64,000 nt of DNA, from positions 1,302,001 to 1,366,000 of the forward strand of contig OY725504.1 of NCBI GenBank assembly GCA_963281255.1. Direction: 5' to 3'. This document shows positions 16,642 through 64,000 of this stretch, one piece after another. The notes beneath the pieces are model-generated. The model saw only the letters and a program-made list of their open reading frames with translations. It had not been told where the DNA came from and ran no database searches. Source of the stretch: Aphrocallistes beatrix. Taxonomy: Eukaryota; Porifera; Hexactinellida; Sceptrulophora; Aphrocallistidae. A program made the translations under genes and the position numbers. Every line of letters begins with the position of its first letter. The stretch's first letter is position 1.

Positions 16642-39242
<22,601 letters not shown>

Positions 39243-39901
39243 GTGAGTAATTTATTAATGTGTACTATTTATTATATTTTTATTTTACTGTGTGATTGTA
39301 CGCGTATGTGTTTATTACAGCTAGTTTAACTCATTTACAAAGACTGCATTATTGTACTACAAGTGCCTCGTTAAGTATTACATCTCGCGTAACTTGTGTA
39401 AATGTTTCAACCGGAGCCCCAATTCGGCTTGCTTGCAAATCTTGGATCTGTAGGGCCTGAAGGCGACCTGGGTTCCTCATACGCCACTAATCATGACTTA
39501 CCTCGTTTATATTCTCTTGAACGAGCGGTTTACTAACCTTATTAAGCCATGTAATACACGTAGTTTATAGTAATACTTAAATTAATGATTTGGGATGCAA
39601 TGTGACTCAGGAAATGTTTTACTCTGGCTGGGGACTACCAACTAAGAACCTCCCCAGTTTAATTGATAGATACGTCGTCGCTGATAGCTCTTTTAGAACG
39701 TTAACAGATGCACCGGATATCCGGATTTTTATGTCGCCTTACCAGATATCCGGTCCGGCCGGATAGAACTATTTATTGACAAAATGCATAAATTGATTTA
39801 TTACCTTAACAGCAGGGGTGGCGCGAGATTTTTATTATTTACTTGATATGTTTATGATTTTAAGCAGTAAACCTAATTTACTGTACTAAATAATCTTGAA
39901 G

Positions 39902-40105
39902 TAGGCTCCGCTTAATAGGGTCACTGTTTGTTGTTTAATCGGGCCACTTTTGGCAGGACCGGAATAGCTCCCACACATAGAAGCTAGTGCAAAATATTTT
40001 CGCTTAATAGGGTTCTCCGCTTAATCGGGGATTAAGCAGAGAACCCCTTAATCGGGGCATAATGTCCTCTGCCTGATGTGACCCTATTAAGCCGAGTCGA
40101 CTGTA
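39902..40105. mobile_element. Tigger/pogo-like MITE
   Basis: TAGGCTCCGCTTAATAGGGT on the left and (reverse) TACAGTCGACTCGGCTTAAT on the right share GGCTTAATAGGGTCAC-type ends, flanked by TA. The interior has further CTTAATCGGGG repeats. It lies between myosin exon 23 and the first kinase gene. Confidence 0.6.
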
Positions 40106-40634
40106 TTTCAAAAGATAACTGAATCAAGATTAAAATTTCAAACTTTTCCCAATACTTATAGCAATCGATCGAATATCAAAAATAATTTTGCTATGCAGCT
40201 GAAGGTCCATTGCTACCCATGTGCGGCCCCAGGGTATAAAACCTGGCGTTGCCCCTGCCTAACAGATTCGAAATATCTAGACTAGATCACTGGACAGCAA
40301 AATTATCTTCTAAAAATATACCTCTCCTTTTCCTTTCAATTATTCTCTGTGGTTAGCAGTCGAGATTTATGTGCTTCTAAGATTAGTAATCGAAAAGTAA
40401 ATGAAAATTCATAGACAGTGATCATGTCAGCAACTGAAATTATTTAAATAAAAAGTGAAAATAACCTCATTATAGATAGATACTTATGACGCAAATACGA
40501 GTATCAACCATTAATGAATTGAAAATTTCATAAAATAATCAAACCTTAAGATGTTATCACATTGAAATTAGTAGGCTCGCATTTCATTATTGTAGTTATT
40601 ATTATAATGTTGTATTCATGGTAGCAACACAAAC

Positions 40635-40642
40635 TATAAAAG
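40635..40642 (+). promoter_or_regulatory. TATA box of the first PKC-like gene
   Basis: TATAAAAG lies 62 bp before the end of the leader and 69 bp before the ATG at 40704. Confidence 0.5.
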
Positions 40643-40703
40643 CTTTGAATTCATTATTAGTTTTTAGTAAGCTTTGTAATAATATTACAAACAAAACATT
40701 GCA

Positions 40704-42764
40704 ATGGCAAGTTCAGATGGAAAGCCTAGTCTTAATGAGAGAGAAACTCATTCAATACGCAATGCTCGATTAGTAGCTTTTAAGGGCAAAAAGCAATTAG
40801 TAATCAAGGATCATCTTTTCGAACTTCACTTCTTCAAGCAACCTACCTACTGTTCCCATTGCACTCAGCTTATTTTCGGTCTAGGAAAAAAAGGTTATCA
40901 GTGCCTGCGATGTAAGTATGCCGTGCATAAGTATTGCATCAACTTGCTCACATTCAACTGTGCATGTTCCGATACGTTCAAATATGAAGCTGACCAGAGT
41001 GAACAGGGTGTTGAGCACGAATTCATTCCAGACTGTGAACAGACAACAGGATTTTGCGATCACTGTGGTCAAGTTATGGGTGGTATTTTTACGAAAGGAG
41101 TTAAATGTAAGGATGCTATTTGCCAAATGGTCGTGCATCCCCAATGTGCCGAGTTCGTACCTAAGAATTGTGGATTTCTACGTCACAAGAAGTTCGGTTC
41201 AATTTTATTATCGATGATATATACTGGACTCTCTGATGGTAATGTTGATCTTAAAATGACGATATTTCGTGCCAACAACCTTCTTCCTGCAGACAGTAAC
41301 GGTCTCTCGGATCCATATTGCAAAGTGAAGATATGCGATGAGAAGGGAGATGTGCTAGGGAAGGCTTCAACAAAGATCAAATGCAAGACACTCAACCCGA
41401 TTTTTGATGAAAGTTTTGAATTCACCATACGTTACTCTTCTAATGTCCGCTTGTTCCTTCGAGTCTACGACTATGATAACATGATATCAAGTGATTTTCT
41501 TGGCGGCATGTCCATGTTTTTAGACGAAGTTAAGAAATATGGAACAGGTGACAGGATGTGGTTCAACCTACTCAGTGAGGGAGTGTGGAACTCTGCTCAT
41601 GAGTTGGAGGTTATTGAGAATGCAGAAATGGAGAAAATATTTCAAAAAGTCTGCGGTCAACGAAGGGATTCGAAAATTGACTTTTTAAAACGGCAAAAAA
41701 GTCAACCTCTTTTGACAATAAATGAAGGAAATGAAATTATATCTCTTGAATCCTTTTTTCTGCTTCAAGAACTCGGATCTGGTGCATTTGGAAAGGTATA
41801 TCTGGTAAAACCTAAGTTGTCGAAGGACGAATTATACGCACTGAAGATAATTCACAAAGACTATCTTGTCGAATCAGATGCTGTTGAAAACGCAACTTTG
41901 GAAAAGGATATCCTAATCAAATATGGCCTGTCTAATTTTATTTCAAAATTAGCGGCTACATTTCAGGACGAGAACAACGTATACATGGTGATGGAATACT
42001 TGGGAGGTGGGGATTTCTTCAATCTCATCATGGCGGAGACCAGACTAACTCAGGAAAAAGCTCGGTATTACATTGCTGAAGTTTCCCTGGGCTTATTTTA
42101 TCTGCATAAAAAAGGTGTGATTCATCGCGATTTGAAGTTGGAGAACGTTATGCTTACAGTGGATAGACATGCTAAACTCATCGATTTCGGTCTATCCAGA
42201 GTGGGTGTGTTTAAAGAAAAGAATTTTGCCCACACTTATTGCGGGACGCCTACGTACATGGCTCCAGAAATGATGAACAGAGAGCCCTACGACGCTGCTG
42301 TTGACCTGTGGAGTCTCGGTATCATAACGTTTGAGTTGCTCACCGGGCTGATGCCTTACAATGGGTATGATGTCGAGACCTTGAAACCACTTGTAACTCT
42401 GCTGCCTCACTTCCCTTCCAGACTCTCCATCTCAGCTGTCGTCTTCATTTCCAAACTTCTTCAATTCAAGCCGAAGCAAAGAATCGGATACAGTACTGTA
42501 TATGGGGAAGAGCGATTCAAAAATTGCACGTTTTTCCTCGATTTTGATTGGGATAGATTAGAAGCTCATGGTCTGCCTCCTCCCGAATTGGCTTCTCTTG
42601 CAACTAAATTAGCTAAAAAGGTAGTCCCGCCCAGCCCCGGGGATGTGAAAGTAAGCACAGGAGAACCGCACCATGACTTCGTAATCGACCAGGACCTCTT
42701 TAAGTCTTTTGATTTTGTTGATCCAGGCTTCTTTTCGACGGGACAGTCCAGAATAAAAGTATAG
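40704..42764 (+). CDS. Conventional-type protein kinase C (C1-C1-C2-kinase), intronless
   Basis: 686-residue Ser/Thr kinase, full length for the family. Order: pseudosubstrate-like basic segment (about 17-30), C1A 37-86 with every zinc ligand at PKC spacing, C1B 105-156, C2 about 168-290, kinase about 350-612, C-terminal tail. C2 keeps all five calcium-binding Asp (197, 203, 256, 258, 264). Kinase residues are G-loop 358-363, K381, E400, HRD 474-476, DFG 494-496 and activation-loop T511. Diacylglycerol- and calcium-dependent membrane recruitment is therefore expected. Oddities: C1B has C-x4-C instead of C-x2-C, and the hydrophobic motif reads F-x-x-F-D-F with Asp670 replacing the phosphorylated Ser/Thr, as in atypical PKC or PKN. 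The absence of introns suggests retroposition. It lies 1.5 kb after the last visible myosin exon, same strand. Confidence 0.93.
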   Translation: MASSDGKPSLNERETHSIRNARLVAFKGKKQLVIKDHLFELHFFKQPTYCSHCTQLIFGLGKKGYQCLRCKYAVHKYCINLLTFNCACSDTFKYEADQSEQGVEHEFIPDCEQTTGFCDHCGQVMGGIFTKGVKCKDAICQMVVHPQCAEFVPKNCGFLRHKKFGSILLSMIYTGLSDGNVDLKMTIFRANNLLPADSNGLSDPYCKVKICDEKGDVLGKASTKIKCKTLNPIFDESFEFTIRYSSNVRLFLRVYDYDNMISSDFLGGMSMFLDEVKKYGTGDRMWFNLLSEGVWNSAHELEVIENAEMEKIFQKVCGQRRDSKIDFLKRQKSQPLLTINEGNEIISLESFFLLQELGSGAFGKVYLVKPKLSKDELYALKIIHKDYLVESDAVENATLEKDILIKYGLSNFISKLAATFQDENNVYMVMEYLGGGDFFNLIMAETRLTQEKARYYIAEVSLGLFYLHKKGVIHRDLKLENVMLTVDRHAKLIDFGLSRVGVFKEKNFAHTYCGTPTYMAPEMMNREPYDAAVDLWSLGIITFELLTGLMPYNGYDVETLKPLVTLLPHFPSRLSISAVVFISKLLQFKPKQRIGYSTVYGEERFKNCTFFLDFDWDRLEAHGLPPPELASLATKLAKKVVPPSPGDVKVSTGEPHHDFVIDQDLFKSFDFVDPGFFSTGQSRIKV

Positions 42765-43653
42765 CGAACCACTCAGATTATTTTCTTAGTCTCCTGCTTC
42801 TGTTAGTAGCCATCAGGTGCAGGTTTAGAGAGAACCTTATAGCATATGTAATTAAGCACTCACTCTTTCTACACACATCCACCATATTTCTTAGCTTGCT
42901 TCCTGAGAACCTTTTAGTATAACGGGTTCTTTCATTTGTGTATTTCTATATTTACCAATTATCCATTGTACATGTTTCTAGTGCTTTACAAGTCTATCCT
43001 GCAATTGATTAAACTAGTATAATGACCACCTGTGCTTTTCCATTATAACGATAACGCTTTCCTTCTGGTTGAACCCCTAGAGGGTATGCCTGAGAGTAGG
43101 GCTTTATATTACTTACATCAATCAATTGTTCAAGCAAAGAACTCGTTGTTCAATGTAGTGAAATATTCGCTATATTACAAGTATTGAGTCGATGTTTATA
43201 AAATGGATTTTAAGTGTTAATTTTAAAAGAAAATCAAGTTTAAGTTTAAGTTTTGACAAAAAATAAGTTTTCAGTTAAGTGTTCTTATCTTAAGAAACTT
43301 AGTAAATACTTTGTAAAAGCTTAGTTTATGGCTCAGTTTAAGTTTTCTTTTGAATAAGGCCCCAGGCCCTTAATCTTTCTTAGTTCTGTTGCGAAGATCC
43401 GTGAGATTCTTTTACTGGATTACCATGGATAGTTTTGTAGCGTAGAATTGTGAGATTTTGTTTCGCTTTCTCAAATGGTCTTGTGGTTCAATCTATATCG
43501 TAACTTGATAACCACCATTACAATTCATATATTCTATATTCCGTCAAATTAATTAGTTATTTTGAACACTCTTGCTCTGATTCATTTTGTTTTTGCCTGA
43601 TACTGTACTTTCCGGATTCTCATTGTAATAATAAGTAATCATCAAACCACATA
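42765..43653. other. 3' flank of the first PKC-like gene
   Basis: AT-rich, without a recognised gene or element. Confidence 0.4.
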
Positions 43654-43789
43654 CTTTCGGCAAGATGTCCTTTCGGCAAGATGTCCTTTCGGCAAAATGT
43701 CCTTTCGGCAAGATGTCCTTTCGGCAAAATGTCCTTTCGGCAAGATGTCCTTTCGGCAAGATTCTTGCGGCATGATGTCTTTCGGCAAG
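43654..43789. repeat. 16-bp tandem repeat, about seven copies
   Basis: Unit TTTCGGCAAGATGTCC with an A/G variant, decaying after 43765. Confidence 0.9.
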
Positions 43790-44394
43790 GTGGGCGGACA
43801 CGGTTTTAATAGCAGTTGCTTTTTGCTATGATGCAATTCCTGGTTTTGGAGAAATAATATCTTGCATAACCTACTCAACATATATTAAGTAGGCAATGGA
43901 TCTTGTTATTGCGCAGTATAATGATGGAAGGTTGGTTATTGAATTATCGTGGTGCTGATAAGCTTGGACCATATAAAAGGTTGTCTGAGTGCCCACGGTT
44001 TTATTCGACTCAACGCTACGTAGGACAAGGCATACTTGCTGCCGGTCACTTGTCGATTAATTTATACTTTATGAATCATGATCAGTGTCCCTTCCCTTCA
44101 TTGGTAAGAAGTGCCCCCTGTCACGAGGGTGCGCCCCCGAGTGGACTCGAGAGTTGGGAAAGCCTTATGATCCAACTAGAGGGTGCCCTTCAGCTATGTC
44201 TTATTAGCTAACCCAAAGGTGAGGCCATGTGAGGAATACTGGATAGGGGACCGGATCCATTGTGAATTTCGCTGGCACAGAGCATTATATTATTTTCCGC
44301 TTGGATTTGAAGACTTCACGCTGTGGTGATTAGTCTTGGTAAGACATGCCACCTTATCCACTCATGAAGAAAGTGCATCGGTATGAGGATTTCG
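43790..44394. other. Unassigned segment
   Basis: Slightly GC-richer than its surroundings. A 102-codon frame at 43903-44211 has no recognisable domain and I do not call it a gene. Confidence 0.35.
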
Positions 44395-44672
44395 AGTAAA
44401 ATGACTACAACCAAAACGGCTATATTCAAAACGGTTACAAGCCAAACGACCTTCAGTCCAATACGGGTAGCTACAGACAATAAAAGCAACATGTGTACAT
44501 ACAAGCTAGTGCAAAATTCCCATGATTACATTATCATACGCCTAAAATGCTATAACATCACGTGACTACTGCAATTCTCCACCTCAAAAGCTTGTTAAAG
44601 TTTGTAGCCTTTTTGGTCTATAACCGTTTTGACCTGTGTTATCCGTTTTGGTTTGTAGCCGCTTTGACCTGC
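44395..44672. mobile_element. Fold-back element with CAAAACGG repeats
   Basis: The left part repeats ACCAAAACGGCTA and CAAAACGGTTACA; the right part carries their reverse complements (ACCGTTTTGACC, CCGTTTTGGTTTGTAGCC). No target duplication identified. Confidence 0.55.
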
Positions 44673-46202
44673 CCTGACATGAGCCTTGAAGTGATGAAGA
44701 TGGATCAGGTATATTATTCCATTCAATCGGGGGATATTTCTGTTCAACTGATCAACTCAACAGTATTTTAATCTTCCTAAATATTAGTATTGTTCTCACA
44801 AAACTGGGCAAACCCAGCAAAATTCTAAAATTAGTTTCATATGTGCAAAAGTTTATTAATCAGTTTTGCCAGCCATGTCGATTATTTTAAATCGTTTTCC
44901 TCAGCCAATGTTCCCCTAATAACCGGCCTTTGGAAAAATACACTCGTTAATGACCAGCCACCTTTTGTGACGTGCCATTGTTCCAAGGCTGTTGCTCATG
45001 TACGGCCCCTTATTGTGTGTTTAATTTATAACCTTGGTATTTAATACCGTTTGAAGTTATTAACCAATACGTATATAATATGTGTTTGATGTTGGTAACC
45101 TTGACCATTAGTTAATTAATAAACTAAATAATCAATAAACTCAATAATTAAGACTGGAAATTTTGTTGCATAAGTTTAGGAACGATACATATCTATATTT
45201 TTAACGAGTAGTCCAGTTGTTAAGTAATGTTATTATTGAACACTGAATCCAAATAACAGTCGAGATGAATTTGTTGGTTACCTAGAAGTGAGAATCATAT
45301 ACTGTACTGTATTATCTAATAGTGCCATTGTTACTTCTGAGGTTAAGATACTGACTAAGATTTTGGCGAAATCTGATATTACTATTTACAGTCGGGACAA
45401 CAGGCCGGATGGTGTGCTGATCGGCCTAAAAATACGATTTGACCGGCCATCTGGCAGGATAAATCTAGTTTTGACCGGCCGGCCGGTCAAAAAATGGCTT
45501 AGAGGGAGCATTGGCTTCAGCTGCTTGGGAAAATAACATGATTGATAATACTCTATCAGCTTGTTGATTCTTTTGAAGCATTCTTCAAAAGAATTAACAA
45601 ACTGATGGTAGAAACTGAATATATGATATTACTCAGTATGTGTCGATGGCGATTTATTATTTTTTATTTACCACAAACTTAAATTTCATGTAATTGAGTG
45701 CAGAGCATCAACACATATTCAAATTATTTCCTAATTAATATTTAGTAAGTTTTGTTCATACTATTAAGATTTAGTCCAATAGATTTTCTGGTAAACACCC
45801 TGAGAAATTAATGTTAAACTTACATCAGCGAATTATTTACGTAATGCAGCTGTTAAACATTGAATACTTTCATTTTAAACATTATGTTTTAACCCCAAAT
45901 ATCTATACCAGACTCGGAATTCAAAGAATACTTACCTAAAACTATAATATTTCTCTCAATAAGGGAAATTTCTTATTGACTATCTTTTGGAAAATATTCT
46001 TTTAAGCAGATGATTATCCAAGAATATTCCTGACTCTCTGCAATTTCTCAAATTAGTTTCTTACAAAATTTTGATTCGAATAGCTGGAACTTCAAAAATC
46101 AGGTTCCAAAAGTCACAATTCTTAAATGGTTATTTTCTCCTGATTAAATATTTTATAACTTCTAATATTTGTTATTAATTCATAATCCTTGAATATTACT
46201 GT
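44673..46202. other. Intergenic, nothing convincing
   Basis: AT-rich. A GGCCGGCCGGTC palindrome cluster lies at about 45400-45492 and may belong to a small MITE. No coding sequence recognised. Confidence 0.35.
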
Positions 46203-47420
46203 ACACCCTCGCTAATCCGAACAGCTAGCAGCTCTGTACCAATATGATAGAATCAATCGCTCGGATTATTGAATTTATTCCGATTAGTGAGATAATTACC
46301 ATCAATTCAATGGGGAATTGACCCTTCCAGTAGATTTGGATGGTTAGCAAATTCTTGATGTGTGCAAATAATTATCCTATTTTGCCAGACTTGCACTAAT
46401 TTTTTGCTATCTTAAGTCTTGGAATACATTATCCTCTGTCATCATTGATCGCTAAATACCATCTCCTCGACTGCTTACTGACCATTATGCAATATATAAT
46501 GGTTACATATATTCTGCAGTCAGTGCACCTGGTATTGTGCAACCAGTGAAATCTTACAACAACGTCTCATCAAACAGCTAAGAACGTATTATGCACCTGT
46601 TCCCACATTGACTAGACTTTCTTTTAATTTGATTGTATCTGACGTAATCTTTACATGGATTTACATCCATTTGTTCAAGGATGGGTTGAAATTGATATTT
46701 GATTTTCAGTATGCATAAATTACTCCTCAATTATTTTGGGACTCTTACAACGCCCATACTTGTCTAGTTCTTTAATTTCCACAGTACAATCTTGAACAAT
46801 GATGTTCTAGGATCTAGGTAAAAACGGTGAGCTCTATTTTTGATAATTTTGCATGTTGAAAGTGTGGTAGCTATTTTCTGGAACTTTCAATTACAAACTT
46901 TGACCTACCCTTATCCCATAATCTTTATTGCTTTGCATTCCTGAGGATGATATTTTTTTCTTCCGGATTATCTCAACAATCTTTGTGCCAATTAATCAAT
47001 TGAATATTCAATAGATTCCATCGTCTAATTTTCAAAAAATCGTTGAATAAAGTCGAATAATGATTAGACTAATGATCCCGAATCTCGATCGTATTTGCCT
47101 AAATTAATAATTAAATAAAGAAAATATGCGCCCGCTCTAAATGATAAGGGGATTTTCATATGAGTGAGAGTATCAATGCATATTCAAGTGTGAGGCTAAC
47201 ATTTGTAATTAATCCACAATTTAGAGTGAAATGAATTACAAATATTCGAGAGAGAGCACAAAGTGCGCGGGCGTAATTTTCTATTTTATAGGATTGCGTA
47301 TAAAATGTTACTCTTGTACTAGCTGGCCTGAGACGGAATCGTTTCCATTGGTTAATTACTGGAGACTCCGATTATTCGGGACAGAATATCGAGACCCGAT
47401 TGATTAGCAGAATTGACTGT
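46203..47420. mobile_element. Possible pogo-like element
   Basis: Left TACACCCTCGCTAATCCGAA and (reverse) right TACAGTCAATTCTGCTAATC are weakly inverted with TA flanks, a pattern of pogo/Tigger ends. The interior is AT-rich without transposase. The pairing of the ends is uncertain. Confidence 0.35.
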
Positions 47421-48195
47421 ATCGACTAATATTAGGGTTGAAATATGGAACCGATCGTGATTTCATGGGGGAGGACGTACCCCCACTGCCTATCCTATGC
47501 CTATGACTGCCTATTTGAAGAGGGGGGACGTGGCTATGGAGATGTTCAATCCTCTCTCTGGATACACTACTGGGAGCTGCTATTTCTCTCATGTTTATCT
47601 ACATTTTGTTATGATGATTTGATGATGGTTTTGCTAATTCGATCACACTTTTTTGGCCATGCAGTAGTATGTAGTATCTTGAAACAATAGCAAAACTTGA
47701 GTTGGTTGTACTCGTATTACTCCATCATCTAATTTTTCCTGGTTTCTAAGAATGTTACAAATATTCACTTGTCAGCATAGCCATAGAGTTATATCATCAT
47801 AATTTTAAGAAAGGCGAATTTATGACTATAATTGTGCAATTGCTATACTTCCACATTAATATTCTTTTTGTAAAGAAAGGATTATAACTATTGGTTAGCA
47901 TTTCTTTGCGTTATTTTTGTCAGAAATTAAATGAACTATCAAGGGATTTGTATTTATTTCTCCCTTCGTCTAATTACCAGCTTAATTAGTATAATACGAT
48001 CGTGCTTGTACTAAATTCTTCTTATCAGTACTTGGATATGGCATGCAGGCCCTAGGCACCAGGCTCGAAGTGTCCGGTGCAAACCAGTCCGAGCGTACAA
48101 AATGGTCCTTTTGATCAAATTGGTAACAAGTGGTTAGGTTTAAACCGGACCAACCGGACGGGTGGCTACGGGCCTTGACATGTTGCCAATTACAT
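47421..48195. other. Intergenic with a possible small hAT MITE
   Basis: At 48055-48178 CAGGCCCTAGGCACC and GGGCCTTG could be inverted hAT-like ends, but no 8-bp duplication was found. Otherwise nothing recognised. Confidence 0.35.
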
Positions 48196-51750: not shown

Positions 51751-51810
51751 GACCTTATTTTCAAAATATCAACTCGAATAACTTCACACAATTCATTGTA
51801 CAAAATAAAT

Positions 51811-53697
51811 ATGATTTCTACTCAGATATCCAAAATTAAAAATATATTCATAAAGGCGAAGAATTACTCTCCAGTTGAAATGGCCTGTGACTGTGATCAT
51901 GAATATAAGTTGGAGTTCTTAAAACAGACTACAACTTGTTCCCATTGCTCTACAGATATTTCAGGGATTCAGAAGCAGGTTTACAAATGTCGGAATTGCC
52001 AAAGTACTTGTCACACAGATTGCATGGACAGACTCCCTCATGATTCTCTAAAGGATGTTTGTTTGGAAAAACATTCTTTTCATCGAACTTCAAAAATGAT
52101 TTCGTTTTGCGACCATTGCGGGAAATTCATTTGTGGTCTATTTCAAAAAGTTTACGAATGTTCAAATGAACAATGCCAACTTCAGCTCCATTCTTCTTGC
52201 CGCTGTCTCATATCCCAAGAATGTTCAAATTTATCTACAAATAAATTCGGTGCGCTGGTCCTTAATTTACTATCCTTCTCGACTGGAAGCTCTCTTGTCA
52301 TACAAATTGACGTTATAGAAGCTCGAAACCTAATTATACCAACCCAAAACCGTCTTCCTAATCTCTTTTGCACGTTCGTTTTGAAATATGGATCGCGAGT
52401 TCTTGAAACGTTTGCTACAGGTATTCAAAATGAGGCACCCAATCCACATTTTGATGATTCAATTATTTTCAATATTCAGGATGATTCAAAGGTAGAGCTC
52501 CATATTACAATGTACAACAAGTTGAAAACAAAGCGTATGTCTTTTCTTGGTGGAATGATGCTGTCTCTTGGAGATATTAAGCGTTACAGCACTGGAACTG
52601 ACATCACATTTTCATTACTTAATCGATCCAAGTTAGCTCGGTCTTTCCACCATATTGCCATTCCAACTCAAACGGATACTCCCTCTCACAGCCTTACCCT
52701 CAGAGACTTCTCGGTTAAGACACGGGTAGGTGAAGGGGGATTCGGAACAGTTTACCTTGCGAATCTCGAAAAGTGTCGAACAAGAGCGTTCGCAATCAAA
52801 GTGTTCAATAAGCAGCGGATCGAGCAAGAAGATCTAACTAACTCACTCTTAGTCGAGCATCGAGTTGGTTTGATTCCGGAAAGGCCCTCCTTTTTGGCAG
52901 GAATACTGGCTTCCTTTCAGGACGAGGAAAATTATTACATGGTCTTCGACTTCTTTGGTGGAGGTGATCTGCTCTACCATATTTATAACGAGAAATTATT
53001 TCTTGAAAACCGCACACGATTTTACGTTGCCGAGCTTTCAATTGCTCTTTTTTTCCTGCACAAACGAGGAATTGCATACCTAGATCTGAAGCTGGAAAAC
53101 ATACTCCTAGATAATGATGGGCATATCAAGCTTGTAGACTTTGGATTTTGTGCTGAAGATGTTTACAATGGACGGTCCCATACGAGCTCTCCTCGCGGAA
53201 CCTTAGAATACATAGCGCCTGAAATTTTGGAAAATAGTCCTCATGACTGTGGAGCTGACCTATGGAGTCTGGGAGTTCTGACCTACGAAATGATGCTCGG
53301 AAGAGTTCCTTTCTCTGCCGAATCCCAGCAAGATATGTTGGATATTATTTTGAAGGAACCTCCCAGAATCCCTCAGCATCTGTCAGAACCAGCCCGCAAT
53401 TTTATCACTAGTTTGCTCAAGATAAATCCTGAAGATAGATTGGGGTATGACTTTGAAAGTGGATTTCAAAATTTCAGATCTGCCCAATTTTTCTCGGAGA
53501 TTGATTGGACTAAATTGGAGAATAGAGTATTGACTCCTCCCTTTGTTCCCAGATTGCATAGTCTAACAGCCACAACTTACTTCGACACAACTAATGAACC
53601 GTTACAAGTTTCAAACTCATCCAGTTCTTACTCGCTCGAGTCAAAAGCATCCCAAGTTTTTAATTATACATCACCTGATATAATAGCCCTCCTTTGA
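51811..53697 (+). CDS. Divergent PKC-like kinase with degenerate C2 and catalytic motifs, intronless
   Basis: 628 residues from ATG 51811. Same order as the gene at 40704: C1A (H30-C84), C1B (H88-C138), C2-like (about 145-270), kinase (about 300-562), tail. Present: K330, E349, catalytic D425, DFG 443-445, APE near 469-471. Changed: the loop reads YLDLKLEN, so the HRD/YRD arginine is Leu424; the activation segment SHTSSPRGTLEY replaces the PKC FCGTPDY; all five C2 calcium ligands are lost (loop 1 TQNRLPN, loop 3 YNKLKTKRMS). There is no pseudosubstrate and no standard turn or hydrophobic motif. C1B has the same C-x4-C as its paralogue, and C1A has an extended last interval. It is probably calcium-independent with altered activation, and may be a pseudokinase. 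The uninterrupted 628 codons argue for selection, not decay. Confidence 0.9.
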   Translation: MISTQISKIKNIFIKAKNYSPVEMACDCDHEYKLEFLKQTTTCSHCSTDISGIQKQVYKCRNCQSTCHTDCMDRLPHDSLKDVCLEKHSFHRTSKMISFCDHCGKFICGLFQKVYECSNEQCQLQLHSSCRCLISQECSNLSTNKFGALVLNLLSFSTGSSLVIQIDVIEARNLIIPTQNRLPNLFCTFVLKYGSRVLETFATGIQNEAPNPHFDDSIIFNIQDDSKVELHITMYNKLKTKRMSFLGGMMLSLGDIKRYSTGTDITFSLLNRSKLARSFHHIAIPTQTDTPSHSLTLRDFSVKTRVGEGGFGTVYLANLEKCRTRAFAIKVFNKQRIEQEDLTNSLLVEHRVGLIPERPSFLAGILASFQDEENYYMVFDFFGGGDLLYHIYNEKLFLENRTRFYVAELSIALFFLHKRGIAYLDLKLENILLDNDGHIKLVDFGFCAEDVYNGRSHTSSPRGTLEYIAPEILENSPHDCGADLWSLGVLTYEMMLGRVPFSAESQQDMLDIILKEPPRIPQHLSEPARNFITSLLKINPEDRLGYDFESGFQNFRSAQFFSEIDWTKLENRVLTPPFVPRLHSLTATTYFDTTNEPLQVSNSSSSYSLESKASQVFNYTSPDIIALL

Positions 53698-54336: not shown

Positions 54337-54420
54337 GGTATCCAAAATAATTTGTTGAAAAGGAACTTTTAGTATGATGCGTACTAAATGTTCCTTTTCA
54401 ACATATTATTTTGGATTCAA
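54337..54420. repeat. Long hairpin, about 37-bp arms
   Basis: The arms meet at AGTA (54371-54374) and TACT (54382-54385) with a 7-nt loop. Pairing extends through TTGTTGAAAAGGAAC and CCAAAATAAT with few mismatches. Confidence 0.85.
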
Positions 54421-55186: not shown

Positions 55187-55313
55187 TTAACCCGCGGTTG
55201 GCTAGGAATGTTGAAAGTGAAAATGAAAGTACATTGAAAGTGAACTGAAAGTGAAAATGAAAGTGGGGGTTTCTCTATTTATACTTTTGAGACCTAGCCA
55301 GGCGAGGGTTTAA
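55187..55313. mobile_element. piggyBac-like MITE with GAAAGTGAAA repeats, copy 1
   Basis: TTAACCCGCGGTTGGCTAGG and CCTAGCCAGGCGAGGG followed by TTTAA are inverted ends at TTAA sites. The interior repeats GAAAGTGAAA and AATGAAAGT. Confidence 0.72.
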
Positions 55314-55756
55314 AGGACCAAACAGTATCAATCATTAGTTGTTTCCGTCCAAATTTCCGCCATTCTCTTGCTGTATGTGTTATGAATTGATTTTATTACA
55401 TATATCCTTTCGTCAATTAAAAATTGCAAACGGCTTCATTTTGTCGCCATAAACCTTCCTTTCAATTTTTGAACAACATTTCATTTGAGTCAAGCTCTTA
55501 GTGACTGAGGCATTAAATAAATGAATGATATTAGAACATATTAATAGATATATCTATTTAAATAATGTATCTTATTAATGCAATGAATGCTATGCTCCTC
55601 TGAAAGTATGATTACGTTTTACATAAAATCGTACATAGTTGTGTTTAGCTGTTTTAGGCACTAATTAAGTTTCATAATTGTAACAACATCATAGTATTCG
55701 TTGATGGTTTATTCAATCGCTTACCTTGACAATTTCGATGTCTCCATCTATTAATT
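55314..55756. other. Intergenic, nothing recognised
   Basis: AT-rich spacer. Confidence 0.4.
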
Positions 55757-55843
55757 GATTCGTCTAACACTTCAAGTCAAATATTTACTACAGAAGTTTT
55801 GTAACTTCTGTAGTAAAATATTTGACGAATTGTTAGACGAATC
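55757..55843. repeat. Long hairpin, about 41-bp arms, 4-nt loop
   Basis: Arms 55757-55798 and 55803-55843 pair through GATTCGTCTAACA and TACTACAGAAGTT, with one small internal loop and one bulge; the terminal loop is TTGT. Confidence 0.88.
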
Positions 55844-56857
55844 ATGCTCACTTGTTTCCCTGCAAAGCTTGAATACACTTTATTCTCCATGGTGCTTGAA
55901 GATTTCGATTTGTATGGAATGATGTAGAGAACGTTATTCCATATCTGTATGCTGATTTAACATATAAATCACTTCCATATTATCAGCAGTAGTTTATTTA
56001 TTCAATTTTTTGAGCATCCCTGCTATTTGTATAGGAGATTACTTTTGGCATAGACGGGTCCATACGTCATAAATTCTTAGAAAACGAATTTTAATTCGTC
56101 AATTGTATGGTTGATAGTGTGAAGAAACCATGGAGTGTAGCCTATCACACTAAGTTTCGGTTTCAAAACTTTTCTCTCTAATTTCATTCTGTAAATGTGT
56201 TATGAGTCTGACTCGACTAAGCTCTCTTTCCAATCGAATATTACCACTGTCCTAGTCTGAATCAAGTATTTCCTAGTCTGAATCAAGTATAAGTATTTAA
56301 ATGAAGACATAGGGATCTTGGATGAACAATTTTTAGATTTATTTTTAGTTTAGAGTGATACTGGGCTTCTGTGCTATTACTCTATAACCCTTGACTGAAA
56401 AATAACGAAGTATTGAACTTTTTAAAATAGGTTTATACGTAGATTTAAATTCATATAATATATTCGATGTTAATCTGTCGTTTATTCTCTGATGACCACG
56501 AATCAGTATTTTTTGCTTACTGAAAATATTTAATTCAAATTTGTTTCTGGAATTGATTTATTGCGAAGGTCAACTTTACTCGAATGGTATTTACTTACAT
56601 GTAATACACTCAAAAATACTACGTACTTGCTTTTAGATGTTTTGAAAGATAACTTATGGCTTGAATTCTTCCAATCTCTTTTTTTGCTGAGGTTGCTGAA
56701 TTATATGGATTCACTCGATCTTAGTGTAAAATTTAGTGTAAAACTCATTACCACTATTTGCTTTGCTCAGTTACACTACAAAGAAACCAAGGCAAGATTC
56801 CATCATTAATTACCATGCAGCGTTAAGATAGAATTGTTCTAATCTTATTGGCGTACC
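55844..56857. other. Intergenic, nothing recognised
   Basis: AT-rich; an 82-codon frame at 56561 is not convincing. Confidence 0.35.
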
Positions 56858-57020
56858 CAGGCCCGGATTAGGCACGTTCGGAGTGTCCAGCTGAACAGGG
56901 CCGCCCACCAGAGGGGGACCGCCATGCTTGACAAAATTGTTCTCACTGCATCCTTTTGTTGAAATGTAGAAGAGCTTAGCAAAACACGAGGGGGCCGCCC
57001 ACCAGCTTAATCCGGCCCTG
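56858..57020. mobile_element. hAT MITE
   Basis: CAGGCCCGGATTAGGC and GCTTAATCCGGCCCTG are inverted ends. Flanks GGCGTACC (56850-56857) and GACGTACC (57021-57028) form an 8-bp duplication with one mismatch. Confidence 0.82.
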
Positions 57021-57028
57021 GACGTACC

Positions 57029-58682
57029 CGTTTGAACAAATTAGCAATTAGAAGAAAAACAACTCTAACAACCCAGCTGCGGACTAAATAAAGGCGTTGG
57101 ATTAACTCTGAACATGGCCTTTAGCGAACTGACTTTAGTGCTAGAGCTAGGGTGCAAGTTTATGATATAGGAAACCTCTGAGATAATGGATATTCAATTG
57201 TCATTCTCAATCCGTTTTTCATCCCGTAGATTCCATATATTCTGTTTTGAATTGCGCATTCCCCAGGAAATACTTTGAATATTGAAATACGGCGTAGCTC
57301 TGCGTAGTGCTTTTGGACCAAGGAGGTGGTTTAACGTATATCCATTTGTGCATCCATCAAATCATTTGATTAATACATACTCGTTTGATTCAGAAAAATT
57401 GTCCTCCCTCACAATATGAGTTGCCATTCTATTGTTGTGGGTAGTAAGAGAGCTAAAAGTATAGAATAGATGACTTCAACAGTTCCTAAGGTACTCGAGG
57501 ATGTAAATTTCTAATATATTAAAATTAATATAATTTGTTTCTATTTACGATATCTCCGTGAAATACTAATTGAAAAAATATGCTCTATACCTAACTGCTA
57601 ACTGAGACGTCCCTCTTTTTCGGTCCCGCGAAAACGTTTCAAAAAGTGAGTTGTCCCGCTTTTCAGTGTCTAGAACTACCACAAATATACTATGCCCCGA
57701 TGAATAGCTCAATGTCCCTCTAAAATACGACTTATGTCCGGCTTTTTTCCTTCCTAGAGGTTGGCATGTATGATGCTAGAGACTGGCTATCAAGTGAACG
57801 GTTTGTCTAATTTGGGAAGCATATTGCAAACATTCTAATTTACAAGCTAATTTATGTGGTAAAAGCTTCCCTCAAAGGGCGACTTAGGCATACATATATT
57901 ACCTGCAAACCATGGTCGCAACCGATTCTTGATTGTTCTTGATTAATCAACTATTAATTGTACGTTATGTTGCAATTTTGGCTGCTAGTTTGACGTATAT
58001 TTAATAAGTCGACTTACGCTGTACGAATTCGATAGTGCAAAACTCAAGATGAGAAAACTTCATTGTATAAGGGTGACGAAATCGGATTTGCAGGTTGCGC
58101 AGAGGATACCTAAAAAATAGATGTATACATAGGTTGTTAAAGGTGATATCTTCTTACAGTACCATGTACAACTGAATATTTAAATTATATTCACCTTGTA
58201 AATCTCACTTTAATTAATATGAATTTACAAAAGCATATCAGAGTAGTAGGAAACAGGAGCAATCTCTCTAGCTTATATCTTTATTATTTCATTAATTTTT
58301 ATTCAGTTTTCCCCTTTTCTAGTACATGGTACTTTTCAAACATTTTTAATTTATTGGTTCTGCTGAATTATTGAGTCATCATTGTTCATCAGAGAATAAA
58401 CGATTTATTTTGTTATTATCGGAGAATTAAGTGATGCAAATCTTTAAATCGACATACAGAAAGGGAACAACATTCTTCAGTTAATAAAAATGCATGGTTT
58501 CCCTTTTAATATTTGAATTTACACATGTATCCATGGTTCATATGCGCAGGCGAGCGAGCCAAGGAGTTGAAATTAGAATGAATATAATAGGAATGCATAC
58601 ACTCAAATATTAATAACCGTTGAAACAAAATTTCTATGTAAAAAATACTAAAAATATTTAATTGTACGTATTTGAAGTTTAA
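57029..58682. other. Intergenic, nothing recognised
   Basis: AT-rich spacer upstream of the second piggyBac-like MITE and the P450 gene. No coding-like segment. Confidence 0.4.
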
Positions 58683-58781
58683 TTAACCCTACTTGGACTC
58701 GGAATGTTGAAGTGAAAGTGAAAGTTAATTGAAAGTGAAAATGAAAGTGGGATTTTTCTATTTAAGTCCAAGTAGGGTTAA
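58683..58781. mobile_element. piggyBac-like MITE with GAAAGTGAAA repeats, copy 2
   Basis: TTAACCCTACTTGGACT and AGTCCAAGTAGGGTTAA are perfect inverted ends at TTAA. The interior is GAATGTTGAAGTGAAAGTG followed by more GAAAGTGAAAATGAAAGTGG units. It lies about 420 bp upstream of the P450 start. Confidence 0.8.
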
Positions 58782-59198
58782 AATATAAAGATTTAAAAAA
58801 ACGTGTGTGCTTATATGTACATGAAGCCTGTCATCTTCATTGAATTTGCTAAATTGGAGGGATCACGGATTGGTTTGAATTCTTCCCTTAAAATTCTTCC
58901 CTTTGATAATTTTGACACTAAATTTCGTACCTAAAATAATGATTTTCATGATCGAATCTATCAGTGTTGCTTTGGTTTTGTTCGGGAGCAAAGCAATTTT
59001 ATTTTTCATCTATTTAATCAGAAATGAGAAAATTGGATAATTCTCCAATCTAACAATATCAAAGTATAGGTCGATCTTTTGGTTATTTATGGATTTCAAT
59101 ATTTTATTGGTAGTATACAAGTATTATTTGAATCTGTTTTTCCTTGATTTAGCATTAAATTTCTCTTTATTTTATATTGAAATCCTGGCTTAGGGATT

Positions 59199-60692
59199 AT
59201 GATTAAGATTCTCATTTATTCCACCTTCGTCGTCGCCTGTTTAACCATTATCTACCGGCTCGTACGATGTGTATTGGATATACTATACTTCCGCAGCTTA
59301 CCTGGACCTAACGTTGACTTTTTATTACGACATGAGATTTCCTTCACAGAGTCTGGTGACAAACTCTCCGAATTCGCGATGAAGTATCAGAGAATATACC
59401 CCCGGCTTTGTAGGTATTTTATAGGCCCCTTTCCTTTCATTACCATATCCCATCCAGAGGTTGTTAAACATATTATTACGAATTTAAAACTTCAGAAGCA
59501 CTACATGTACAGGACAATGCTTGGGTCTTGGATAGGAGATGGTCTGCTATTGTCAAAAGGAAACAAATGGCACCGTCACAGAAAAATAATAACTCCTGCT
59601 TTCCATTACTCTATTCTCTCTTCCGTTTTGAGTGTATACAGGGAGGCTACCACCGTCATGCTCCATTTGTGGGAAGAAACGGCTTTGAAGGATGGTTTTG
59701 TGACTGTACAGGACTTTACCCCTTACCTTTCTTTAGACATCTTGTTACAATCTATTGGTTCACTTAAAACTAATTGTCAAGTGGAGAGAGATGCAGTACA
59801 GTATGTAAAAGATGTTAATTTCTTAACAGAAACATCTGTTTTGCGTTTTTTTAATTTTATGTATATGATAGATGCATACTTCTATCTCACACCGACTGGT
59901 AGAGCTTATCAAGCCTGCTGTAGGAGAGCTCAAGCTTATACTCGAGATCTTATCTTGAAACGGAAACGGATTCTCACGATGCAGAGACAATCTCCCGGTG
60001 CCGAAATGGAGAGTCGAGACTTTCTGGATATCTTGCTAACATCGACTGATGAGAAAGGGGTGGGGCTGACAGATGGGGAGATCTGTGATGAAGTTGACAC
60101 GTTTGTATTTGAAGGTCACGATACTACCTCTTCTGCTATGACCTGGTTACTCTACTATCTTGCCCTCTATCCAGAATATCAGGAAATGTGTCGTGAAGAA
60201 GTGAACCGTTATTTCAACTCGAAAAGATTGGCAATGAAGGACCTCTCTAATCTCGAATTTCTCACAATGTTTATTAAAGAAACTCTCAGGTTAAAGCCAC
60301 CTGTCTACTCTGTTGTTAGGGTAAATGCTCAAACAATTCATCTCGATGGTTACCGAATCCCGAAAAACACTTTAATTGAAATATCAATCCGTCAAATTCA
60401 TCTGAATAGCGAATTCTGGCCTAATCCTTTAAAATTCGATCCTTGGCGATTCTCTAAAGACAATCTTGTTAAAATGGACCCTTACAGTTACTTGCCTTTT
60501 TCTGCTGGAGAACGGAACTGCATTGGCCAGATATTCGCTATGAATGAACTGAGAGTAGTGAGTAGTATGATCCTTCAGAAATTCAAGCTTCAGTTGCATC
60601 CTTGCTTGATCGGTGAAAAAATAGTAGAGAAGCTAGATTTACTGACCAAACCTCTAACCCCAATGAAATTTATTTTAACAAAGTGTAGTTAA
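59199..60692 (+). CDS. Cytochrome P450, CYP4-type, intronless
   Basis: 497-residue heme-thiolate monooxygenase, full length. It has an N-terminal membrane anchor (about 3-24), LPGPN hinge near residue 36, helix C WHRHRK near 123, and I-helix EVDTFVFEGHDTTSS near 300. The Glu before GHDTT is the residue that links covalently to heme in CYP4 enzymes. Also present are K-helix KETLR, the FDPWRF meander, and heme loop FSAGERNCIG with Cys near 441. CYP4 enzymes act in the endoplasmic reticulum, typically omega-hydroxylating fatty acids or metabolising hormones and xenobiotics; the substrate cannot be read here. The ATG at 59199 gives a normal anchor. No intron is present, unlike most animal CYP4 genes, so retroposition or intron loss is likely. 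An AATAAA overlaps the stop codon (60691-60696). Confidence 0.94.
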   Translation: MIKILIYSTFVVACLTIIYRLVRCVLDILYFRSLPGPNVDFLLRHEISFTESGDKLSEFAMKYQRIYPRLCRYFIGPFPFITISHPEVVKHIITNLKLQKHYMYRTMLGSWIGDGLLLSKGNKWHRHRKIITPAFHYSILSSVLSVYREATTVMLHLWEETALKDGFVTVQDFTPYLSLDILLQSIGSLKTNCQVERDAVQYVKDVNFLTETSVLRFFNFMYMIDAYFYLTPTGRAYQACCRRAQAYTRDLILKRKRILTMQRQSPGAEMESRDFLDILLTSTDEKGVGLTDGEICDEVDTFVFEGHDTTSSAMTWLLYYLALYPEYQEMCREEVNRYFNSKRLAMKDLSNLEFLTMFIKETLRLKPPVYSVVRVNAQTIHLDGYRIPKNTLIEISIRQIHLNSEFWPNPLKFDPWRFSKDNLVKMDPYSYLPFSAGERNCIGQIFAMNELRVVSSMILQKFKLQLHPCLIGEKIVEKLDLLTKPLTPMKFILTKCS

Positions 60693-60696
60693 TAAA

Positions 60697-61181
60697 TTTA
60701 TTTTTATGATCTATTAATGTTTACAACGTTTACTTTTTAGAGCCATAGTCATAGTCAAAATACTACTAGGGAAGCTATAATTGATTAGTTTTACGATTTG
60801 GAGTCTAGGGAGCTTCCATAAATATTGTTATTTCAGAAGAAGTGATTATTACACGACACGAATTGAAATGACGAGATAGCCAAAAATTCCAAACAATAAT
60901 TTCAATGATCAATTCAAACTTATTTTTGACTATCGATTATTTTTTTGGATTAATAGAATTTTCAGGTCATCTGCCGAACTTAACTATTAATTCGCGGTAA
61001 CAATTTTTAGTGCAGCTCCTAAATGGAGATGCCCTTATGGCATGGACCGGGTATCTCGTACGCGCACTACTGCGAAATCTAACAGTCCGATTTTTACCAA
61101 ATTTCGCATGTAGGATCTCTTGTGTAGATGTACACCGTCAACATTTTTTCGCAAAATCTCATCAATTCCGGTTTTTATAAG
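60697..61181. other. 3' flank of the P450 gene
   Basis: AT-rich spacer up to the first Tc1 terminus. No feature recognised. Confidence 0.4.
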
Positions 61182-61265
61182 TACAGCGTGTATCATAAGT
61201 GTTGTCGGGTATTATAATTGAATTTAAAAACCCAGAAATGTGTATCATGTACTAGTATACATTTT

Positions 61266-61478
61266 TTAAAAATTTATGTAATCTCCTCGACTATCTATTA
61301 CTGATTTAATACGATTAGGCATACTGGCGACTAGATTTTCCAAGATATTCGGATCAATGCTTGCCCAGGCCTTTTTACTTGAAAATCAGGTGTTCGATTT
61401 TAGTAACATTTTCTATTCGACTGACACTATCATCTTTCAAAATGGACTCTAGATTCTTGATAAGATTGAGATCGGGTG
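61266..61478 (-). pseudogene. Tc1 transposase C-terminus, truncated by the gap
   Basis: Next to the gap the frame reads PDLNLIKNLES, the PDLNPIENLW position with Lys in place of the catalytic Glu. After a frame change it continues WASIDPNILENLVASMPNR and ends at a stop at 61266-61268. The frame shift and lost Glu show it is inactive. Confidence 0.75.
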
Positions 61479-61678
61479 NNNNNNNNNNNNNNNNNNNNNN
61501 NNNNNNNNNNNNNNNNNNNNNNNNNNNNNNNNNNNNNNNNNNNNNNNNNNNNNNNNNNNNNNNNNNNNNNNNNNNNNNNNNNNNNNNNNNNNNNNNNNNN
61601 NNNNNNNNNNNNNNNNNNNNNNNNNNNNNNNNNNNNNNNNNNNNNNNNNNNNNNNNNNNNNNNNNNNNNNNNNNNNNN
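61479..61678. other. 200-N assembly gap
   Basis: Exactly 200 N. The true distance is unknown. Apparent open frames crossing it are meaningless. Confidence 0.99.
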
Positions 61679-62458
61679 CAAGGTTGCAACCGAATATTTC
61701 AATATTCGGTTAGACCAAATACTATTTGTCAAATAGTTGATATTCGGTTGGGACCAGGATATCAGTATTCATTTTCGTTTGAGTAACCGAATATTATCAG
61801 TATTCATATTCGGTTAAAGCAGTGATTTTCAACCAGTGGGCCACGGACTTCTTTTCAGTGGGCCACGGCCTGGTGATCTAATAATACAGTATAATCTCCA
61901 AAAGTGAACACCTCTAAAAGATGAACAACTCCAAAACATGAACACTTTTTCTCGGGCCCAAATTTTTCCATTCTGTTACATATTATTTAACCTTCAACTT
62001 GTGAACACCTCTGAAAAGTGAAACGTGAACACCTAATCTTGTCCCAAATGTCCAAATTACAGTGGATATGGCCTCTTAAAAGTGAACATAGCATGTGGCT
62101 TCATTAGATAATAGGCTAGAGTTAATATTTGATGTAGAATTTGGATATGAATTCATCATAAATTGGAAGACCCTCTCTCTGTTTAGGATATAATTATCCT
62201 CACCCATTCTTAATGATTGCTAGTAAAAAAGTATTAATAGTAAAATAGAAATGTCACAGTAATGTAGTGGGCCACGGTTTTTTCTGTAGTACGCTAGGTG
62301 GGCCACAGCAGTAAAAAGGTTGAAAACCCCTGGGTTAAAGTAACCAAATATTATCAGTATTCATATTCGGTTAGAATAACTGAATATTATCAGTATTCGT
62401 ATTTAGTTAGGGAACTATTCATGAATACTGATATTCGGTTCAATCGGTTTCAACCTTG
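61679..62458. mobile_element. MITE with CAAGGTTGCAACCG ends and ACCGAATATT repeats
   Basis: CAAGGTTGCAACCGAATA on the left and ATCGGTTTCAACCTTG on the right are inverted ends. The interior repeats AACCGAATATTATCAGTATT several times. Its left end touches the gap, so it could start earlier. Fragments of the family occur at 55013-55095. Confidence 0.6.
61820..62332. mobile_element. hAT MITE with 8-bp target duplication, nested
   Basis: Ends CAGTGATTTTCAACCAGTGG and GGTTGAAAACCCCTG; GGTTAAAG flanks both sides (61812-61819 and 62333-62340). The interior includes GTGGGCCACGG repeats and a block of AAAGTGAACACCTC repeats. Confidence 0.88.
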
Positions 62459-62506
62459 CTACTTAGGCAATTCTATTACCCGACAACACTTATGATACAC
62501 CCTGTA

Positions 62507-63848
62507 TACAGTCTGTCCCATAATTATTGAGAAAATGTTTAATTGAATATCCTTAGTAATTGAAACGAAATTTCAATACCTATTCATCTAAATCTTAGAC
62601 ATTCCTCTATTTGATGGATATTTTTCTATAATTAGTATGGTATAAACTTGGTTGTTTTTTTTAATTATGCAAAAATATGTGATGCGTCATCATTACTTAG
62701 CACTATCTGACTAATGTTAGTTTGTTGTGAATTTCTAAAGAGCTTAGATACGCTAGTTATTGAGATGTCTCAAGTTTCAAAGAGGAATGAAATTCGAACC
62801 CTCTGGACCTCAAAGATATACAACCTGAAACAAATTAGCCGAGCACTCGACGTTTCCTTAGCGACAGTCTACCGTGTAATTCGCCGAATTTCAGAACAAC
62901 AGTCACTAGGTCACCATCGTGGTGCAGGAAGACCGGCTATAGTCTATCAGGCGATTAAGAAAAGTGTGGTTAAGCAAATCAGAGATGATCCAAAGGTCTC
63001 TATTCGCGAAATTTCATCGAAGTTACCTTGTTCAGCTAGCAAAACAAGCGTCCATCGTTGTCTTAAAAAGTTGGATTATTCAAAACTCTTTCCGAAGAAA
63101 GTTCCCATGTTGTCTGAGACAAATCGTATTAAACGTCTAGATTGGGCAAGAACTAATATACGTAGACAGACCGTGGAATCAAGCAATTTTCGCGGATGAA
63201 GCATCCTTTTGGCTTTTTGGTGGTTCAGTGAGGATGTGGACTAAGAATAGTGAATTCAGAGTTGCCCCCACTGTTAGCATAATGCAAAGATCAATATTTG
63301 GGCCGGATTTTCTTCAATGGGGACATTCCCACTCTGTATTTTCGAACACAATATGAACGGTGAATTCTTTGTGAAGATTCTAGAGGTTCATTTACTGGCG
63401 CAAGCAGATGTTTTTCATGAAAGAAATTGGTTTTTGGTACAGGATAATGATCCCAAACACACTTGTAAGAAGGCAAGGGATTGGATGCAGCAAAATATGC
63501 CTCAAAACACCTTTGGTTGGCCAAGTCAGAGTCCTGATATCAATCCAATAGAGAATCTATTCGGATGGATAAAGCATAACCTTAGTAGAGATCGACCAAG
63601 AACAAAATCAGACCTTAAAGATCGGATTTCTGTCTTATGGGATTCCATAACCCCGGAGTTTTTGGAACCTTACTGGTCTTCAATGCCGAAAAGGTGTCAT
63701 AAAATGATCGACAGCAATGGTAACAAGATAAATTACTGATCATCAGACACATATAGTAATATTCTGCTTAAAATTTAATAATGGAATTGAATAATTGATA
63801 TTCATTTTAGTACTTAGGTGATTCTCAATAATTACGGGACAGACTGTA
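62507..63848 (+). mobile_element. Tc1/mariner element abutting the previous one
   Basis: TACAGTCTGTCCCATAATTA and (reverse) TACAGTCTGTCCCGTAATTA are inverted ends with TTGAGAA following, and TA on both sides. 1342 bp. It is inserted at the TATA formed with the right terminus of the 61182-62506 element. Confidence 0.9.
62765..63739 (+). pseudogene. Tc1-like transposase with two frameshifts, DD35E spacing
   Basis: The N-terminal 145 codons contain a paired-type helix-turn-helix (QISRALDVSLATVYRVIRR) and a GRP linker. A frameshift near 63170 precedes the first catalytic region AIFADEASFWLF, another near 63320 precedes VQDNDPKHT and NPIENLFGWIK. From the Asp of QDNDP to the Glu of PIEN there are 35 residues, one more than canonical Tc1. 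Both Asp and Glu are intact, so the copy is recent but dead, unless the shifts are sequencing errors. Confidence 0.85.
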
Positions 63849-63899
63849 TACTCTTATTTTAACACAATCACTGCAAAGCTTTGTTTTAAGATATAAGTA

Positions 63900-64000
63900 A
63901 GATCTCAACCATGGGCGCCGAACTTTTCGAAATCTATGGATAATTTTGGCGTCCTAGGGGGGGCTCAGCCCTAAAATTTGTATTGCGCCTATGGACCATC
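63900..64000. repeat. Start of a dispersed repeat at the window edge
   Basis: GGGCGCCGAACTTTTCG and a closing GCGCCTATGGACC resemble the ends of short hAT/SINE-like repeats. It is cut by the window edge, so no call can be made. Confidence 0.3.

What the first reader, a model, noticed from the sequence alone, without database searches (positions are those of the whole stretch)
39243..64000. Myosin II exons stop at a perfect donor; three intact intronless genes follow
Exon 23 ends at GTGAGT and about 450 rod residues are still owed, but no heptad-coding, GC-rich exon could be found in the next 24.7 kb. All other visible introns are at most about 3.3 kb. Two PKC-like genes and a P450 lie in the space on the same strand. 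Either one giant intron hosts three genes, or the myosin gene is truncated or the scaffold misjoined.
Basis: partly seen in the sequence, partly recalled or inferred. Interest (0 to 1): 0.75.

Follow-up and report, generated by a model that had tools for sequence, protein, structure and literature searches.

The report
Giant myosin intron holding four genes
The myosin gene is not broken: its missing tail lies about 7 kb past the end of the window, on the far side of one unusually long intron that contains four separate intron-free genes.

Summary
The window is C18:1302001-1366000 of a 100.5-Mb, 28-contig animal genome. No myosin rod exon was found in 39,243-64,000. The rod resumes at window coordinate 70,875, same strand, next residue, phase 0; exons 22-24 together align to human MYH9 over 225 residues without a gap. 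Eight further rod pieces follow, to 85.3 kb. So this is one gene with a ~31.6-kb intron (it holds a 200-N gap, so its true size is unknown), more than nine times the next longest intron in the window. It hosts four intronless ORFs, not three: three PKC-like kinases, one beyond the window on the other strand, and a CYP4-like P450. Intronless genes are frequent in the families searched here. Truncation or misjoin is unlikely. One surprise: GC3 is 0.71 in exons 1-22 but 0.32 from exon 23 on, a break at a 214-bp intron inside the gene. Nested genes are a known kind.

The parts
16660..39242 (+). Myosin II heavy chain, head and proximal rod, about 23 exons (GC3 of the first 22 pieces 0.71)
   Evidence: tblastn with MYH9, exon translations, codon counts. 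Exon edges are alignment-based except at junctions 22|23|24; about 20 rod residues between 31,860 and 35,204 were not located.
38567..38980 (+). Exon 22 (rod). Its donor GTTGAT is weak by eye. Read-through gives ...[14 protein letters not shown] and a stop at 39008-39010
   Evidence: Pfam Myosin_tail_1 9e-26
39195..39242 (+). Exon 23, 16 codons, phase 0 on both sides, GC3 0.31
39243..64000 (+). Giant intron. It continues past the window to coordinate 70874 (31,632 bp including a 200-N gap), GTGAGT...TTCAG, GC 0.36
40704..42764 (+). Nested gene 1: intronless PKC-like kinase, 686 aa, C1-C1-C2-kinase; HRD, DFG and the C2 Asp residues kept on reading the alignment
51811..53697 (+). Nested gene 2: intronless diverged PKC-like kinase, 628 aa; YLD in place of HRD, C2 calcium-site Asp residues lost on reading the alignment
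59199..60692 (+). Nested gene 3: intronless CYP4-like P450, 497 aa
61479..61678 (.). 200-N scaffold gap, inside repetitive sequence flanked by inverted arms 61182-61220 and 62468-62506
62504..63851 (+). Tc1-like element with 30-nt terminal inverted repeats; transposase matches lie in two open stretches separated by stop codons

Best explanation
This is a single myosin II heavy chain gene, about 69 kb from the first matched exon to the last matched rod exon. One phase-0 intron (39,243-70,874) has grown to about 31.6 kb and contains four independent intronless protein-coding genes: three PKC-like kinases and one CYP4-like P450. The host transcript is spliced across the intron, and the nested genes presumably use their own promoters. 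Intronless genes are frequent in this genome's kinase, P450, actin and myosin families, so a long stretch of tolerated sequence holding several of them is not strange here. PKC1 and PKC3 look like a local duplicate pair; the P450's closest relatives lie on other contigs. Shown: exon continuity, phase, strand, ORF integrity, and the frequency of intronless genes in the families searched. Inferred: transcription and splicing across the intron, and separate promoters.
For: The rod resumes at 70,875 with VQDLEKIKRNLENQ, matching MYH9 1520 VHELEKSKRALEQQ. Exons 22|23|24 align to MYH9 over 225 residues without a gap. Of 916 AG sites on the + strand between 39.3 and 92 kb that open at least 20 codons, 70,875 scores best (211; the next five are in-frame sites inside the same exon). 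Eight further rod pieces follow in order at about 71,964, 73,770, 73,934, 74,211, 75,276, 79,096, 79,286 and 85,203 (the shortest are weak alone). The whole-genome tail search gives eight of its 10 matches on this locus, with profile order rising along the + strand. A fourth nested ORF, 787 aa, C1-C1-C2-kinase, covers C18:1367701-1369695 minus. Intronless genes: 22 of 55 P450 matches, the nested one included, cover at least 397 of 497 residues in one frame; 6 of 78 myosin-head matches span profile 2-679 in one open frame. PKC1 and PKC3 are sisters, support 96/98, in a 7-row tree.
Against: No RNA data. The scaffold gap (200 N) lies inside the intron, so the intron's length, and strictly the join, is an assembly statement. 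Codon usage differs sharply between exons 1-22 and exon 23 onward, which a plain single-transcript model does not predict; the second myosin II locus shows no such step. The stop codon and last residues of the tail were not located. Three of the four nested ORFs are on the host's strand, where their transcription could disturb the host's.
Confidence: 0.92

Rival explanations
1. Two-module gene: the abundant transcript ends in or just after exon 22 (read-through stop at 39,008-39,010) and gives a myosin without the distal rod, while the long form across the giant intron is rare. Same-strand nested genes may favour this by transcriptional interference. It is compatible with the gene structure above.
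For: GC3 is 0.52-0.87 in 22 of 22 upstream exon pieces and 0.26-0.41 in 10 of 10 exons from exon 23 on, with no overlap (Mann-Whitney p 8e-6). All 12 amino acids listed that have synonymous codons shift down; Arg least (0.57 to 0.48). Intron GC falls far less, from a median of 0.38 (21 introns) to 0.32 (10 introns) (values). Among 41 single-ORF genes the front-minus-tail difference has mean 0.01, sd 0.063, maximum 0.16. Exon 22's donor is weak by eye. PMC3192792 (passages) reports interference by same-strand nested genes in human.
Against: No AATAAA or ATTAAA in the 691 bases searched after the read-through stop, only variants. The tail protein is well conserved (62% to MYH9 over 72 residues). 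GC3 does not simply follow expression: a myosin-XVIII-like intronless ORF has GC3 of 0.60-0.96 along its length. The controls are intronless genes, mostly of other families, several of them paralogues or cut at a locus edge. A myosin lacking the distal rod should not form filaments (established knowledge).
Confidence: 0.2
2. Chimeric gene: the tail (exon 23 onward) came from a different, low-GC3 myosin copy by recombination inside the 214-bp intron 38,981-39,194.
For: The codon-usage break falls at that intron and not at the giant intron.
Against: Residue-perfect continuity. No donor or relic found: the exon 22-23 DNA has one match in the genome, itself (a DNA search would miss diverged copies), and the tail search shows no other free tail.
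Confidence: 0.1
3. Truncated myosin or scaffold misjoin between 39 and 64 kb.
For: A 200-N gap at 61,479-61,678 inside repeats.
Against: The right-hand side carries the exact missing tail, same strand and phase. Inverted repeat arms sit on both sides of the gap. The matched upstream exons are open and the motor's nucleotide-binding motifs (names recalled) are kept.
Confidence: 0.04

Closest known systems
Nested (intronic) protein-coding genes of animals (2mit in tim2, PMC3786989; ceh-10 in polq-1, PMC12274878; passages read)
   Same: Complete genes lie inside an intron of an unrelated host. PMC3786989 gives about 6% of genes in D. melanogaster, 2.1% in C. elegans and 0.5% in human.
   Different: Four genes in one intron, three of them PKC paralogues; three on the host's strand, whereas the opposite orientation is called frequent in PMC3786989.
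Smooth/non-muscle type myosin II heavy chain
   Same: Head and rod in the MYH9 order; exon 22 scores best against smooth and non-muscle myosins in the PDB.
   Different: Rod much diverged (29-40% in the upstream rod pieces), one ~31.6-kb intron, and a break in codon usage.
Catchin and myosin rod protein (PMC3912159, passages)
   Same: They show that parts of a myosin heavy chain gene can be separate products.
   Different: Those are tail-only products, the rod protein starting right after the motor and catchin about 260 residues later; no such product is shown here.

Membership tests
Nested gene in an intron | Whole coding sequence lies between two consecutive exons of the host | tested here: met
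   ORFs at 40704-42764, 51811-53697, 59199-60692 and the ORF covering C18:1367701-1369695 lie between exon 23 and the exon at 70875
Nested gene in an intron | Host transcript is spliced across the nested genes | not testable with these tools
   No RNA data
Myosin II heavy chain | Motor domain followed by a long coiled-coil rod up to the distal rod | tested here: met
   the very end and the stop codon were not located
Conventional PKC | C1-C1-C2-kinase order | tested here: met
   PKC1, PKC2 and PKC3 by Pfam
Conventional PKC | Calcium-site Asp residues of C2 and an intact HRD-type motif (recalled) | tested here: inconclusive
   Read by eye: kept in PKC1; lost in PKC2; PKC3 has YRD, its C2 not examined residue by residue
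CYP4 P450 | P450 domain closest to CYP4 members, with the heme-binding Cys motif (recalled) | tested here: met
   P450 Pfam 3.9e-97; best PDB match CYP4B1 314.6 bits against 153.1 for the next family, CYP3A4; FSAGERNCIG in the ORF
Retrogene | Intronless copy with an intron-bearing parent, poly-A tail and target-site duplication | tested here: inconclusive
   A P450 relative at C6:213441-215388 matches in three pieces. The PKC search shows no intron-bearing parent among the 67 matches listed, but only 65 of 300 candidates were scored. No A-run of 8 or more in the 1.5 kb after the stop codons of PKC1, PKC2 and the P450 (PKC3 not tested). Duplications not tested.

The most novel reading that the evidence does not exclude
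The gene works as two expression modules. The heavily codon-biased front (exons 1-22) mainly makes a myosin that stops near 39,008 and cannot build filaments. The weakly biased tail is added only in a minority of transcripts that cross a giant intron holding same-strand genes, so the nested genes' activity would set the ratio of filament-forming to soluble myosin.
Probability: 0.15. Interest if true: 0.65.

Novelty: new member of a known kind. Interest (0 to 1): 0.36.

Why it matters
It removes a suspected assembly error. It also gives a clear case of a multi-gene intron in an animal genome where intronless and intron-rich genes of the same family coexist. The codon-usage break inside the gene is a simple, testable hint that its two parts may be expressed differently.

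Tried and rejected
Considered and rejected: truncation (the tail exists); misjoin (tail, strand and phase agree); rod exons hidden in 39-64 kb on either strand; RNA genes in the window (no tRNA by ARAGORN with the bacterial code; no Rfam match at gathering score). A splice from exon 23 to an acceptor near 39,322 followed by CTA GTT TAA was noticed by eye and not pursued.

Led nowhere: the source species was not identified. The mitochondrial COX1 on C28 reads TGA as Trp, AGA at what look like Ser positions, and AAA as Lys at NHKD (positions recalled), so an invertebrate-type code is inferred. The 13-row kinase tree was poorly resolved and its row L022 was a wrong ORF; it was redone with 7 rows, where holding the three intron PKCs together was not rejected (p-AU 0.243), PKC2 being a long branch. 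Paper searches: (myosin heavy chain, giant intron, nested gene) listed five papers, none on this by title; on intron-poor animals listed, among others, the intron-losing mite Aculops lycopersici (PMC7738191, listing and start of abstract only), so a strongly intron-poor animal is already in print. Searches supplied the papers cited or nothing used.

Codon-count details: one search put exon 23 in a wrong frame; one search uses 39195-39242. The front is about 1,457 codons and the tail about 399. For the 41 controls, 18 of 62 loci were set aside by name and 3 more had no ORF of 350 codons; the L022 row again used a wrong ORF.

Full report
What was asked. It left open a giant intron, a truncated gene, or a misjoin.

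Checking the observation. The myosin exons run from 16.66 to 39.24 kb on the + strand. Exon 23 is 39195-39242 and is followed by GTGAGT. A rod-composition scan of both strands gives 29.6 or more for eight rod exons upstream and at most 14.3 in the space, in a sequence that recurs elsewhere in the window. Because four true tail exons score only 10.8-15.3 in the same scan, the scan alone is not proof; the alignment below is. The two PKC-like ORFs and the P450 ORF are uninterrupted.

Where the tail is. A search of the window's own assembly (100.5 Mb, 28 contigs; the window is C18:1302001-1366000) for the myosin-tail family gives 10 matches, eight of them on this locus, with profile positions rising along the + strand. 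The first of the three beyond the window is at C18:1372875, window coordinate 70,875. The fetched DNA matches the window where they overlap (999 bases compared) and holds no N up to coordinate 83,000. The exon at 70,875 begins VQDLEKIKRNLENQ, where MYH9 residue 1520 begins VHELEKSKRALEQQ. Exons 22, 23 and 24 together align to MYH9 over 225 residues without a gap, with phase 0 at both junctions. Among 916 AG sites on the + strand in 39.3-92 kb that open at least 20 codons, 70,875 is the best. Further rod pieces lie at about 71,964, 73,770, 73,934, 74,211, 75,276, 79,096, 79,286 and 85,203. The last residues and the stop codon were not located. The intron is therefore 39,243-70,874, 31,632 bp including a 200-N gap of unknown true size.

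Is the scaffold right? The only gap inside the intron, 61,479-61,678, sits in repetitive sequence, with inverted arms on either side (61,182-61,220 and 62,468-62,506). The right-hand piece supplies exactly the missing tail, on the same strand and in the same phase. The two other tail matches are at a second, intron-rich myosin locus on C18 and in an intronless myosin-XVIII-like ORF on C1 (the class is my reading of its divergence). A misjoin would have to imitate all this.

What the intron holds. PKC1 (686 aa), PKC2 (628 aa, with YLD for HRD and lost C2 aspartates by eye), a CYP4-like P450 (497 aa), and, beyond the window, a third PKC-like ORF of 787 codons on the minus strand covering C18:1367701-1369695. 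PKC1 and PKC3 are sisters in a 7-row tree (96/98), with a pair on C17 as the nearest others; PKC2 is a long branch of unsure place. The four ORFs cover about 25% of the intron. A Tc1-like element also lies there.

Intronless genes are frequent here. Of 55 P450 matches, 22, the nested one included, cover at least 397 of 497 residues in one open frame. Of 78 myosin-head matches, 6 span profile 2-679 in one open frame, in ORFs of 1,224 to 2,398 codons, next to intron-rich myosins (65 of 70 candidates scored). Four PKC-like genes (PKC1 itself, PKC3 and the two on C17) match over nearly the whole length in one frame, and PKC2 in two pieces of one frame (65 of 300 candidates scored). The first eight of 64 actin matches span the family almost wholly in one frame. 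I did not survey genes in general, so this says nothing about the fraction of all genes. Whether these arose by retroposition is open: a P450 relative on C6 matches in three pieces, but the PKC search shows no intron-bearing parent, and no A-run of 8 or more follows PKC1, PKC2 or the P450 within 1.5 kb.

A surprise. GC3 of the 22 exon pieces upstream is 0.52-0.87 (overall 0.71). Exon 23 has 0.31 and the nine tail exons 0.26-0.41. The two sets do not overlap (Mann-Whitney p 8e-6), and all 12 listed amino acids with synonymous codons shift down, Arg least. Introns change far less, from a median of 0.38 to 0.32 (values). The break is at the 214-bp intron before exon 23, not at the giant intron. 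In 41 single-ORF genes (of 62 loci, 18 set aside by name and 3 without an ORF of 350 codons) the front-minus-tail difference has mean 0.01, sd 0.063 and maximum 0.16, against 0.39 here; one of the 41 rows used a wrong ORF and several ORFs are cut at a locus edge. The second myosin II locus ranges over 0.29-0.58 without a step, and an unconventional myosin on C19 over 0.51-0.71. Sixteen actin and tubulin loci range over 0.48-0.79; that the highest are the highly expressed ones is presumed, not tested. A myosin-XVIII-like ORF has 0.60-0.96, lowest at its 3' end, so GC3 is not a clean measure of expression, and some decline toward the 3' end occurs elsewhere. Possible causes are a rarely used tail, a recombined tail, or a local effect not understood. 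Papers seen: PMC3192792 (passages) describes same-strand nested genes causing intron retention and exonization in human hosts, and L1 elements also cryptic polyadenylation. PMC3912159 (passages) describes catchin and myosin rod protein as separate products of myosin genes. PMC2741454 (abstract and outline) reports reduced codon bias near splice boundaries.

Verdict. One myosin gene, one giant intron, four nested genes. Nested genes are a known kind (PMC3786989, passages; PMC12274878, passages). What is left to explain is the codon-usage break.

Noticed in passing
38981-39194 and exons on both sides: GC3 drops from 0.71 (22 exon pieces) to 0.32 (exon 23 and nine tail exons) across a 214-bp intron within one gene; 41 control ORFs differ by at most 0.16.
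   Followed up: partly
G000, families searched: Within one family, complete intronless genes (myosin ORFs up to 2,398 codons, 22 P450 matches) sit beside intron-rich members.
   Followed up: partly
2357-3685: A further intronless gene, a sugar-transporter-like protein of up to 442 aa, lies upstream of the myosin gene.
   Followed up: no
L010/L044, window coordinates 82979-84019: A 347-codon open frame that looks like a mariner-type transposase (recalled, not tested) lies in the 5.9-kb myosin intron 79.34-85.2 kb.
   Followed up: no
37209-38202: Tandem array of a 40-bp unit, about 25 copies, in the intron before exon 22.
   Followed up: no
32343-32900: A 185-codon open frame inside a myosin intron with no Pfam match.
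   Followed up: no
C28:3140-4480 (L038): Mitochondrial COX1 with TGA as Trp, AGA apparently as Ser and AAA as Lys, so an invertebrate-type mitochondrial code.
   Followed up: partly
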